DNA of 35,931 bases from Candidatus Naiadarchaeum limnaeum. GTDB taxonomy: Archaea; Undinarchaeota; Undinarchaeia; Undinarchaeales; Naiadarchaeaceae. The notes beneath the pieces are model-generated. The model was not told the origin of the DNA. It was given only the letters and a program-made list of their open reading frames with translations, and searched no databases. Positions 1,958 through 18,210 of the stretch are shown here, in pieces. The stretch spans positions 1 through 35,931 of the forward strand of contig DVAB01000016.1 of the NCBI GenBank assembly GCA_014189685.1. The letters run 5' to 3'. The position numbers were made by a program, and so were the translations under genes. Each line of letters starts with the position of its first letter. Position 1 is the first letter of the stretch.

Positions 1958-2628
1958 TTTAATCCAACACCAACTCCAAAAAGATAGTGTGCCATTGGAT
2001 AAAAGCCGGTGTGAACAACCTCATCATTCATAGAAAATATAAATACGTTCCTAAAATAGCGGCTTAGCAGTTTTCGTAGAGTTGTGTGGCTCTTTAAATT
2101 TATGTGCTGGACACTGCTTCGATGGGTTGCGTATTTCTCTGCAGTAATGTTTGGGGTGCCAATTATACAAACACCATCATCAGTTAATGATTTGCAGCTA
2201 TTTTGCATAAACTTCTTTTCCACTTTTGGATCAAGATGCTCGATTACGTCGATTGAAAAAATTCCGGCAAATTTCTTGTTTAGAACTTTTTCAGTAATAT
2301 CAAGTGTGTGAAATTCTATATTTTTTATGTTTGAAAGGCGCCCCATATTATTTTTGATTAGACGCTCATCCCAATCTATGCAATAGAGGCTCTTGACAGA
2401 TTGCGCTACAATTGGGGCCCCAAGACCGTCTCCACATCCAATTTCTAAAACCGACCTCTTGCCCTCCAGCATTTTAGCACAAAATTTGTATCTTGAAAGT
2501 ACAAAACACATATGTTTGGGGTCGTGTAGTAGGCTATATGAAGACCAGGGTCCAAGTTGAATAATCTCCGACTCAAATTGATAGTCAGTTCCGCTGTGAT
2601 GAAGTTTTTCTTGTTTTTTTGTAACCAT
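1954..2628 (-). CDS. Class I SAM-dependent methyltransferase
   Basis: This 224-residue protein has a Rossmann-type SAM-binding motif I, VLEIGCGDGLG, at about residues 60-70. An acidic strand end, YCIDWDERL, follows near 82, and a motif resembling post-motif II, FSIDVIEHLDP, near 124. These are typical of small-molecule or sugar methyltransferases. The N-terminus (residues 1-45) is unassigned. The ATG at 2628 is preceded by a GGTGG ribosome-binding sequence and sits about 40 bases downstream of a TATATATATA promoter, so it begins the second transcription unit of the cluster. Its stop overlaps the GTG start of the transketolase N-half. The likely substrate is a cluster sugar or nucleotide sugar, inferred from neighbours only. 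Confidence 0.75.
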   Translation of the reverse strand: MVTKKQEKLHHSGTDYQFESEIIQLGPWSSYSLLHDPKHMCFVLSRYKFCAKMLEGKRSVLEIGCGDGLGAPIVAQSVKSLYCIDWDERLIKNNMGRLSNIKNIEFHTLDITEKVLNKKFAGIFSIDVIEHLDPKVEKKFMQNSCKSLTDDGVCIIGTPNITAEKYATHRSSVQHINLKSHTTLRKLLSRYFRNVFIFSMNDEVVHTGFYPMAHYLFGVGVGLK

Positions 2629-13180: not shown

Positions 13181-14107
13181 ATGGATATTTATACACATAA
13201 GAAAGGAATTGGCTTTGTAAAATCAAAAAAGATAAGCCCGCGCTCTGAAAATTGGGTTGATCTAGTTAGCCCAACTGAAACAGAATTGAAGGAAATATCG
13301 AAAAAATTTAAAATACCACTCTTTTTATTAAAAAGAGAAAAAAGACCGCATAGGCCAAAGTTTGAGAATTTTAAAAAGTTTGTTGCGTTTAATTTTAAGA
13401 AGGTAAAATTTAATAAGGAGATTTCAACGCAGCATGTGACATTTATTTTTGCAGAAAGGTATCTGATAACAATACACTCTGGACTTCAAGAATTGTCTGA
13501 ATTAAAGAAAAAAATAAATAAAAAGGATTTTGAAGTAAGACATGTAACAGATAGCGATTATTTGCTCTATTTAATGCTTGAGGATTTAATTGAGAGTTTT
13601 TTCCCAATACTTGAGAAAATTGATGCAAAAATAGAAAAGCTACAGAGAGTGGTTTTTGATGAAGTTGGCCAAGCTGTGCTCGAGGAAATTTTTGAGCTGC
13701 GGCAAATTGTTTTTGAGCTGCATAAAATTCTGGCAGCTGAGAGAGAAGTTTTATTGTTCCTGCATGAGGGGGTGCCTGGGATAAAAGACAAAAATGTTAT
13801 GTATTTTAAGGATTTGTACAACCATCTTTTGCAGATCACTGATGAGGAGGAAATAGCGCGCGAGGTTTTGGGAAATACTGCTGAAACTTATGTTTCAGTG
13901 ACTAATAACAGAATACAAGATGCCACGAAAGTTCTCACTGTTATTGCAACAATTCTTCTTCCTATGACTGTTATAACTGGAATATATGGAATGAATGTAA
14001 GTTTCCCTGAGGCAAAAGTTCCTGGATTTTATTATGCGATTCTTGGAATTCTTGCAATGAGTGGGTTAGGTACTTATCTATATTTCAAAAGAAAGGGTTG
14101 GGCTTAA
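13181..14107 (+). CDS. corA: CorA-like divalent cation transporter
   Basis: This 308-residue protein ends in two transmembrane segments. The CorA signature GMN (in GIYGMNVSFPE, near 270) comes directly after the first of them. The N-terminal 230 residues form the charged cytoplasmic domain, with the long helix ending in ATKVLTVIATILLPMTVITG. CorA proteins are pentameric channels for Mg2+ (also Co2+ or Ni2+). The acidic/polar loop after GMN (VSFPEAKVPG) is shorter and less acidic than in classic CorA, so the cation preference is open. It is monocistronic by appearance, since a likely non-coding stretch follows. Confidence 0.88.
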   Translation: MDIYTHKKGIGFVKSKKISPRSENWVDLVSPTETELKEISKKFKIPLFLLKREKRPHRPKFENFKKFVAFNFKKVKFNKEISTQHVTFIFAERYLITIHSGLQELSELKKKINKKDFEVRHVTDSDYLLYLMLEDLIESFFPILEKIDAKIEKLQRVVFDEVGQAVLEEIFELRQIVFELHKILAAEREVLLFLHEGVPGIKDKNVMYFKDLYNHLLQITDEEEIAREVLGNTAETYVSVTNNRIQDATKVLTVIATILLPMTVITGIYGMNVSFPEAKVPGFYYAILGILAMSGLGTYLYFKRKGWA

Positions 14108-14115
14108 AACTAATT

Positions 14116-14213
14116 CTTGGCACCCTAGAGATGGCCGTAGGCCTATTTAGGGATTGCGAGTTCACAAATTTTCAAATAGACGAGCAATCCCTAATGTAGT
14201 CCCATGGTGCCAG
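14116..14213 (+). ncRNA. Candidate structured RNA in the corA-UPF0200 intergenic region
   Basis: No frame of note covers this stretch. The sequence closes with an outer stem TTGGCACC (14117-14124) pairing with GGTGCCAG (14206-14213). Inside it are a small GGCC-GTA-GGCC hairpin (14133-14143) and an 11-bp perfect stem TTAGGGATTGC / GCAATCCCTAA (14147-14157 with 14184-14194) with a 26-nt loop, giving a three-way junction. The downstream gene has its own TATA box at about 14,390, so this is not its leader. It is either an independent small RNA (a weak TATA-like CTATATTTC lies near 14,078) or the 3' region of the corA mRNA. It does not match SRP RNA, RNase P RNA, tRNA or a riboswitch that I know. 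Confidence 0.4.
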
Positions 14214-14228
14214 CTGACATTTAAAAGG

Positions 14229-14300
14229 TTGGCACAAATAAGAAAAAACTTCAGCTGTGAAAGGGAAAAAACCGGCCAAAAGAACAATGGCCGGCCACCT
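14229..14300 (+). other. Second pairing partner and GC hairpin following the candidate RNA
   Basis: TTGGCAC recurs at 14229-14235 and could compete with 14117-14124 for pairing with GTGCCAG (14207-14213). A strong hairpin CCGGCCA-9 nt-TGGCCGG occupies 14272-14294. The rest of the 315-base gene-free stretch (14301-14387) holds only an inverted repeat GTAAAT-GA-ATTTAC (14332-14345) and the AT-rich promoter. Confidence 0.45.
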
Positions 14301-14387
14301 CCCAAAGAATATTATAGATAGTTTTAAATGTGTAAATGAATTTACTTCTCCACGCCCCCTTTATTAAATTTGAATTAGGAAAACTCA

Positions 14388-14398
14388 TATTTATATAT
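14388..14398 (+). promoter_or_regulatory. TATA box for the UPF0200 gene
   Basis: ATTTATATATT lies 25-35 bases upstream of ATG 14423, which places transcription initiation at or very near the start codon, so the mRNA is probably leaderless or nearly so. Confidence 0.6.
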
Positions 14399-14422
14399 TG
14401 CGCAACACATCAAAATTGAAGA

Positions 14423-14983
14423 ATGAAAATTGTTGCTTTTGTCGGAATGCCAGGCAGTGGAAAAACAGTTGCTGCAGATGTGGCGCGAAAATTAAAATTT
14501 CCTGTTATGCGATTGGGGGATTTAACAGATGAGGAATTAAAAGCGCGCGGATTAGAGAGAAATGAGATAAATGAAAGAATTGTGCGCGAGGCTCTGCGCG
14601 CGCAGTATGGAATGGATGTTTATGCAAAAAAGGCCGCAGAAAAAATCGAACCTGTGAATTTTGGAAAAAATTTGGTTGTTTTGGATGGGGTAAAAAGTTT
14701 TGAGGAATATTTATTTCTTAAAAGTAAGTTTGGAAAAGGTTTTGTTGCCGTTTGTATTATCGTTTCGCCTGAAACAAGGCACTCAAGATTGATGAAAAGA
14801 AAAATTCGGCCTTTAAAAAAGCAAGATTGCGTGAGCAGGGATCGGTCTGAATTGGAAAATCTGAATGAGGGAGCAACAATTGCGATGTCAGATGTGTTTA
14901 TTTCAAATGAGGGACTAACAAAAAATGAGTTTCAGACAAAAATTGATGGCTTGCTTAAAAAATCTAGTAGAGAAAAGACTTAA
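14423..14983 (+). CDS. UPF0200-family P-loop nucleotide kinase-like protein
   Basis: This 186-residue protein opens with a P-loop, VGMPGSGKT (residues 7-15), and continues with VMRLGDLTDEELKARGLE (about 30-46), the hallmark of the archaeal UPF0200 group related to adenylate and dephospho-CoA kinases. The C-terminal half contains the lid-type basic segment MKRKIRPLKKQDCVSRD (about 120-136) and an NEG motif near the end. The length is normal for the family. The substrate is not established; a nucleotide or cofactor kinase is the usual guess. It is followed, 79 bases later, by a separately promoted PRC-barrel gene. Confidence 0.82.
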   Translation: MKIVAFVGMPGSGKTVAADVARKLKFPVMRLGDLTDEELKARGLERNEINERIVREALRAQYGMDVYAKKAAEKIEPVNFGKNLVVLDGVKSFEEYLFLKSKFGKGFVAVCIIVSPETRHSRLMKRKIRPLKKQDCVSRDRSELENLNEGATIAMSDVFISNEGLTKNEFQTKIDGLLKKSSREKT

Positions 14984-18122: not shown

Positions 18123-18210
18123 CTTGAGTGAAACGAAAGATGGGAGGACAATGCGAAACCTAAGGTTTCGCATGCGTAAAGGAACTTTGTTCCTTTACGA
18201 GCATTTGCTC
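18119..18210 (-). promoter_or_regulatory. Tandem-hairpin leader of the AbrB-PhoU gene
   Basis: From start codon outward: CCATCTT (18119-18125) pairs with AAGATGG (18137-18143), where one arm includes the start codon. ATGCGAAACCT pairs with AGGTTTCGCAT (18151-18173). CGTAAAGGAAC pairs with GTTCCTTTACG across TTT (18175-18199). GAGC pairs with GCTC across ATTT (18199-18210). These are close to perfect and fill most of a leader of about 100 bases that would start near 18,225. They may control translation or be small palindromic elements. Confidence 0.6.

What the first reader, a model, noticed from the sequence alone, without database searches (positions are those of the whole stretch)
14116..14300. 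Candidate new structured RNA with alternative pairing
A gene-free 315-base region folds into an outer 8-bp stem, an inner 11-bp perfect stem and a small GGCC hairpin. A second TTGGCAC downstream can compete for the outer stem, and a strong CCGGCCA/TGGCCGG hairpin follows. The next gene is transcribed from its own promoter downstream, so this is not a simple leader. It matches no RNA class I know.
Basis: partly seen in the sequence, partly recalled or inferred. Interest (0 to 1): 0.55.

Follow-up and report, generated by a model that had tools for sequence, protein, structure and literature searches.

The report
Dispersed, tRNA-hugging hairpin repeat in archaeon
The folded stretch is real, but it is one of about sixteen scattered copies of a small hairpin-forming repeat, found only in this archaeon's genome and often touching or interrupting tRNA genes, so it is more likely a tiny mobile DNA element than a new stand-alone regulatory RNA.

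Summary
The hairpins described are present and fold better than chance (z = -4.4). No Rfam family matches. The decisive result is that the region is not unique. A covariance model of its core (14138-14204) finds 11 strong copies in the 984-kb host genome. Five more divergent or partial copies were found by weak hits and inspection. None was found in the five other genomes of the phylum or in 191 other archaeal genomes. Among 10 copies, 9 of 20 stem pairs show changes on both sides and 98% of cells stay paired. An internal tandem G.A motif and a U.G/U-A pair favour the window's + strand as the folding strand.

Eight of the 11 strong copies touch, flank or interrupt tRNA genes, in both orientations. 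One lies inside a tRNA-Trp intron, and one is flanked by a duplicated tRNA-Thr 5' end. Two copies carry a second dispersed double-hairpin repeat nested inside them.

The best reading is a lineage-specific, non-autonomous mobile structured repeat (like ERIC, REP or double-hairpin elements), here in the corA 3' region. The 'alternative pairing' and the GGCC hairpin occur in this copy only. A dispersed functional sRNA family remains possible.

The parts
14108..14422 (.). Intergenic region between a CorA-family transporter gene (13181-14107 +) and a P-loop nucleoside-kinase-like gene (14423-14983 +)
14138..14204 (+). Conserved core hairpin H1 of the dispersed repeat (covariance model R1, 83.8 bits)
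14147..14194 (+). Inner 11-bp stem of H1 (14147-14157 with 14184-14194); the most covarying part among the copies
14158..14183 (+). Tandem G.A motif (G14158.A14183, A14159.G14182) closed by G14160-C14181; UGCGAGC/GCGAGCA in most copies; A/U-rich loop
   Evidence: and direct reading
14117..14213 (+). Outer stem TTGGCACC (14117-14124) with GGTGCCAG (14206-14213); equivalent pairing perfect in one other copy (C17:4756), imperfect in C37, C46 and C17:~52.1k
14133..14143 (+).
14211..14257 (+). Second hairpin H2: CAGCTGA 14211-14217 with TCAGCTG 14251-14257; other copies have CAGCCGA...TCGGCTG or close variants (C-G to U-A compensatory change in the window copy)
14229..14235 (+). Second TTGGCAC, inside the H2 loop; seen in the window copy only; can compete for the outer stem
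14272..14294 (.). CCGGCCA...TGGCCGG hairpin with an A6 run 14266-14271, i.e. terminator-like on the minus strand; not part of the repeat
18149..18199 (.). Copy of a second dispersed double-hairpin repeat (ATGCGAAACCTAAGGTTTCGCAT-GCGTAAAGGAACTTTGTTCCTTTACG); the same repeat is nested inside two other copies of the H1 element

Best explanation
The window segment (about 14116-14257) is one copy of a lineage-specific, dispersed, structured intergenic repeat of roughly 130-150 bp. It consists of a long imperfect hairpin (H1) with internal bulges and a tandem G.A motif, a second hairpin (H2) downstream, and sometimes an outer stem. The best reading is a small non-autonomous mobile element. It spreads as DNA, or through an RNA or single-stranded intermediate. 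It inserts preferentially at tRNA genes and other intergenic sites. It is maintained because its hairpin must be recognised for mobility or is tolerated or useful in transcripts. In the window it lies just after the corA stop codon, so if transcribed it would form a stable structured 3' end or spacer on that mRNA. Shown here: repetition, structural covariation, tRNA association in both orientations, nested and partial copies, and absence from related genomes. Inferred: actual transposition, the mobilising enzyme, and transcription of this copy.
For: (1) 11 strong genomic copies by CM (E 6e-19 to 6e-5) plus 5 divergent or partial ones. None at E<=1e-3 in 196 other archaeal genomes, including the 5 others of the phylum. 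No match in phage or plasmid records. (2) Stem covariation: 9/20 pairs changed on both sides, 98.4% of cells paired, 0/500 shuffles as high, register-slide controls 35-48% paired. (3) tRNA association: 8 of 11 strong copies flank or interrupt tRNA genes. These are tRNA-Leu, tRNA-Pro, tRNA-Thr(GGT), tRNA-Cys plus an orphan tRNA 3' half, a tRNA at C25, the intron of tRNA-Trp(CCA), and the intron and upstream side of a CAT-anticodon tRNA. With an assumed 12% tRNA-adjacent share of intergenic DNA, even 7/11 or 8/14 has p of about 7e-5. (4) Orientation to the tRNA is mixed: sense at C7, C8, C17, C21a and C46; antisense at C25, C41, C44 and C21b. (5) C44 copy: a duplicated 16-nt tRNA-Thr 5' end on the far side of the element. 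A tRNA-Thr(GGU) 5' fragment left by a mobile element is documented in Caldiarchaeum (PMC3293823). (6) Nested insertion: the C41 copy holds a second dispersed double-hairpin repeat, and removing it leaves GAGCA|TGTCCC as in an uninterrupted copy. A second copy at C17 ~52.1 kb is interrupted by the same repeat. C17:51633 is a 5'-half copy.
Against: No terminal inverted repeats or consistent target-site duplications could be defined. No Y1 (IS200/IS605-type) transposase was found in the genome, and other transposase families were not searched. No empty site in a close relative could be shown, because the genus and family contain only this genome. Strong structural constraint on H1 across diverged copies, an RNA-like tandem G.A motif, and sense placement right after stop codons in several copies (window, C37, C24, C21a, C8:4085) also fit a selected RNA element.
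Confidence: 0.6

Rival explanations
1. A dispersed multicopy family of functional noncoding RNAs (sRNA genes). Each copy is transcribed and bound by a protein through the bulged hairpin with tandem G.A, and spread by gene duplication near tRNA genes.
For: Strong compensatory evolution, a conserved tandem G.A motif and U.G to U-A exchange that make sense on the + strand, z -4.4. Some copies sit directly upstream of tRNAs (C7, C46), where RNase P cleavage would release them as leaders.
Against: Copies occur antisense inside tRNA introns, as a half copy, and disrupted by nested repeats. No conserved promoter or terminator was recognised around the window copy (and reading). H2 and the flanks vary freely. 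No Rfam relative.
Confidence: 0.2
2. A cis-acting element in mRNA or tRNA transcripts (3' UTR stabiliser or processing hairpin, or leader), carried along as a repeat.
For: Sense orientation shortly after stop codons of corA, the C37 upstream gene, rpsO (C24), an MgtE-like gene (C21a) and an aminotransferase (C8:4085); upstream of rps3ae, an M24 peptidase gene and tRNAs (gene names from reading the translations).
Against: Antisense copies at C25, C41, C44 and C17:4756. Associated genes share no pathway. Repeats commonly accumulate in 3' regions without function (e.g. QMITE2, PMC10969869).
Confidence: 0.12
3. Part of tRNA splitting or intron machinery: the element is an intron core, or a leader/trailer that pairs tRNA halves in trans.
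For: Two copies lie within tRNA introns, and one copy directly precedes an orphan tRNA 3' half at C8.
Against: A matching 5' half (GCGGAGGT...) was not found; the only pattern hit is coding. The window, C37 and C24 copies have no tRNA nearby. Orientation within tRNA transcripts is antisense in the introns.
Confidence: 0.05
4. A remnant of a group I intron.
For: The 23S rRNA gene of this genome carries a true group I intron, and the P7-like AGACTA/TAGTC strings look similar.
Against: A group I model search of the whole genome finds only the 23S intron, and none of the copies. H1 is one continuous stem with no P3-P7 pseudoknot.
Confidence: 0.01

Closest known systems
ERIC and other small intergenic palindromic MITEs (PMC10969869)
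   Same: About 130 bp, intergenic, multicopy, folds into a long hairpin, often at the 3' side of genes, no coding capacity.
   Different: Archaeal, strongly tRNA-associated, no terminal inverted repeats defined, far fewer copies, no sequence relation shown.
REP / GTAG-tagged palindromes moved by RAYT Y1 transposases (PMC3733652)
   Same: Palindromic hairpins with alternative complementary stem bases, bulges and G.T pairs; found downstream of genes and plausibly transcribed.
   Different: REPs are 20-40 bp with a terminal GTAG tag. Here GTAG is internal, the unit is larger, and no Y1 transposase was found in the genome.
Double-hairpin elements and GC clusters of fungal mitochondrial DNA (Paquin et al. 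2000 and Yin et al. 1981, cited in PMC4478555)
   Same: Two-hairpin mobile units constrained by structure, merging with one another; palindromes flanking tRNA genes in Neurospora mitochondria.
   Different: Different domain of life; H1 carries conserved internal loops; no sequence homology.
tRNA-disrupting mobile element of Caldiarchaeum tRNA-Thr(GGU) (PMC3293823)
   Same: A 5' tRNA-Thr fragment separated from the full tRNA-Thr gene by an inserted element; tRNA intron gain linked to mobile DNA.
   Different: There 1.8 kb with a recombinase gene; here under 200 bp and non-coding.

Membership tests
Known Rfam RNA family | Match at or above the family's gathering score | tested here: not met
   No match in the whole window at gathering; best local hits of the region at E up to 10 are far below cut-off
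Group I intron (RF00028) | Covariance-model match with P3-P7 core | tested here: not met
   Only the 23S rRNA intron scores in the genome
IS200/IS605 (Y1) or RAYT-mobilised REP | Y1 transposase (PF01797) in the genome | tested here: not met
   0 matches in G000; control genomes ring
MITE | Multiple dispersed short non-coding copies | tested here: met
   11 strong plus 5 weaker copies
MITE | Terminal inverted repeats and target-site duplication | tested here: inconclusive
   Ends abrupt but no shared TIR; a 16-nt tRNA-Thr repeat at C44 only
MITE | Presence/absence variation between close strains | not testable with these tools
   Only one genome in the genus and family
Functional structured RNA | Compensatory base changes | tested here: met
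   9 of 20 pairs, 0/500 shuffles
Functional structured RNA | Discrete transcript | not testable with these tools
   No expression data
Riboswitch-like switch (alternative pairing) | Both alternative pairings conserved | tested here: not met
   Second TTGGCAC only in the window copy; pairing probability 0.54 versus 0.23 there
Archaeal H/ACA or C/D sRNA | K-turn or K-loop with ACA box, or C/D boxes | tested here: not met
   By inspection only: the tandem G.A is symmetric within a helix, and no conserved ACA or C/D boxes

The most novel reading that the evidence does not exclude
A mobile structured RNA element that targets tRNA genes in a deep DPANN-like archaeal lineage. It moves without a recognisable transposase of its own (perhaps via its RNA released next to tRNAs) and drives tRNA intron gain and tRNA splitting.
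Probability: 0.1. Interest if true: 0.75.

Novelty: new variant of a known kind. Interest (0 to 1): 0.42.

Why it matters
Small structured repeats that crowd around and inside tRNA genes could explain how archaeal tRNAs gain introns and become split, a question debated for years. This genome shows several steps side by side: a tRNA-flanking repeat, an intron-embedded repeat, a duplicated tRNA 5' end, an orphan tRNA 3' half, and repeats nested within repeats. It also warns that a conserved fold with compensatory changes is not by itself proof of a stand-alone regulatory RNA.

Tried and rejected
- Rfam at gathering score and at permissive E-values: nothing.
- Group I intron remnant: only the true 23S intron scores.
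- IS200/IS605 mobilisation through PF01797: absent.
- Trans-spliced tRNA halves: the 5'-half pattern hit only a coding repeat.
- Homologues outside the genome: exact patterns in genome contigs and viral contigs gave none; six 18-mer hits in viral contigs lack the rest of the element and look like chance; nothing in phages or plasmids, other archaeal genomes or the valS neighbourhoods of better-matching archaea.
- Empty-site test at the tRNA-valS locus: synteny not conserved in the relatives fetched.
- Switch-like alternative pairing: not conserved.

Full report
WHAT WAS CHECKED. The 99-nt region 14116-14214 folds to -36.2 kcal/mol (z -4.37, no shuffle as good). Of 1,434 99-nt windows of the contig, only one is as stable; it overlaps another palindromic repeat at 18151-18199. 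Rfam gives nothing.

IT IS A DISPERSED REPEAT. Searching the host genome (G000, 984 kb, 98% complete) with the window sequence returned many partial copies. An alignment of six copies gave a 67-position covariance model with 20 pairs. It finds 11 copies at E<1e-4: C50:14138 (the window), C21:7440, C17:15482, C24:17870, C37:36556, C25:4361, C21:7629, C7:80412, C44:14817, C8:2344 and C41:296. Weak or shortened relatives are at C17:4756, C8:4085, C46 about 304-354, C17 about 52.1-52.3 kb, and a 5' half at C17:51633. The rest of the phylum (5 genomes) and 191 further archaeal genomes have none. The genus and family contain only this genome. The nearest valS proteins in named genomes, at about 55% identity, mostly belong to records labelled Woesearchaeota, Nanoarchaeota or archaeon, which suggests a DPANN-type archaeon. 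This is not a formal placement.

THE FOLD IS UNDER SELECTION. Among 10 copies, 98.4% of paired cells are standard pairs and 9 of 20 pairs show changes on both sides. No shuffle of 500 reaches the observed score, and sliding the partner by 1-3 columns drops pairing to 35-48%. The six-copy seed alignment gives the same picture. H1 has, from its base: GG/CC, a C.U mismatch, CUAU/GUAG with a U.G or U-A pair, a bulged U, an 8-bp variable stem, usually a second bulged U, 3-5 bp, a tandem G.A and a short closing stem. The tandem G.A and the U.G to U-A exchange fit the window's + strand as the folding strand. This is inference; fold energies favour that strand in 7 of 10 copies. Seven copies continue into a second hairpin, GCGCCAGCCGA...CGGCTG in most; the window has CAGCTGA...TCAGCTG, a compensatory change. 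Other copies carry a different downstream hairpin, and most of those share an upstream AAATAGAAGYAGAAG box.

CONTEXT. Eight of the 11 strong copies adjoin or interrupt tRNA genes. C41 is inside a 215-nt intron of tRNA-Trp(CCA). C21:7629 is inside the intron of a tRNA I read by hand as CAT-anticodon (ARAGORN calls it Ser), and C21:7440 lies upstream of the same gene. C7 ends one base before tRNA-Pro. C44 lies next to tRNA-Thr(GGT), with a second copy of the first 16 nt of that tRNA on its far side. C25 abuts a tRNA 3' end. C17:15482 follows tRNA-Leu. C8 lies between tRNA-Cys and an orphan tRNA 3' half. A ninth, divergent copy (C46) ends at tRNA-Thr(CGT), but it was found only because that tRNA locus had been fetched. 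Orientation is mixed. The assumed background rates for enrichment are given. The window, C37 and C24 copies lie in intergenic gaps after stop codons in the sense direction.

SIGNS OF MOBILITY. A second double-hairpin repeat (ATGCGAAACC.AAGGTTTCGCAT-GC.T...AGGAACTT.GTTCCT...) occurs at 18149-18199 of the window and elsewhere. It is nested in the C41 copy, where its removal leaves GAGCA|TGTCCC, the arrangement of uninterrupted copies, and in the C17 ~52.1-kb copy. A third palindrome (ACAGCGAAAT...ATTTCGCTG) sits in the H2 loop of C7 and in T-loop introns of tRNAs. With the half copy and the lineage restriction, this points to small mobile structured DNA. Missing are defined ends, target duplications and a mobilising enzyme; Y1 transposases are absent.

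CONCLUSION. The fold is real and conserved, but it is a repeat family rather than a single new RNA. I rate a mobile structured repeat at 0.60, a dispersed functional sRNA family at 0.20, and a cis-acting transcript element at 0.12. The alternative-pairing idea rests on a second TTGGCAC seen only in this copy and is not supported. Comparable known kinds are ERIC-like MITEs, REPs and double-hairpin elements. The Caldiarchaeum tRNA-Thr disruption (PMC3293823) is the nearest archaeal precedent for a tRNA fragment separated from its gene by an inserted element.

Noticed in passing
window 18149-18199; L006 rc (C41); L008 about 2040 (C17); L058 3058-3083 (C27): A second family of short double-hairpin repeats with compensatory stem changes between copies; nested inside two copies of the H1 element and present in the window at the start of the PhoU/MazE-domain gene.
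   Followed up: partly
L075 (C6:2168), L074 (C7:69415), L073 (C21:5051), L050 about 2160-2250 (C25): tRNA genes read by hand as Ala(GGC), Arg(TCG), Lys(CTT) and one more appear to carry introns within the T-loop that share GCTCTCGC and sometimes an ACAGCGAAAT...ATTTCGCTG palindrome, suggesting a spreading family of T-loop introns.
   Followed up: partly
L031/L076 (C8 about 2300-2420, minus strand): Orphan tRNA 3' half of Leu/Ser type directly after a copy of the element; no 5' half found by pattern.
   Followed up: partly
L021 1501-1787 (C34:1723-2009): Group I intron (RF00028, 88 bits) inside the 23S rRNA gene; a likely RNase P RNA lies just downstream (62 bits, below the gathering score of 84).
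   Followed up: no
L030 (C44 about 14780-14930): A 16-nt duplicate of the tRNA-Thr(GGT) 5' end lies on the far side of the inserted element, as in the Caldiarchaeum tRNA-Thr case.
   Followed up: partly
window 14266-14294, minus strand: Strong GC hairpin followed by TTTTTT on the minus strand, facing away from the only nearby genes; purpose unclear.
   Followed up: no
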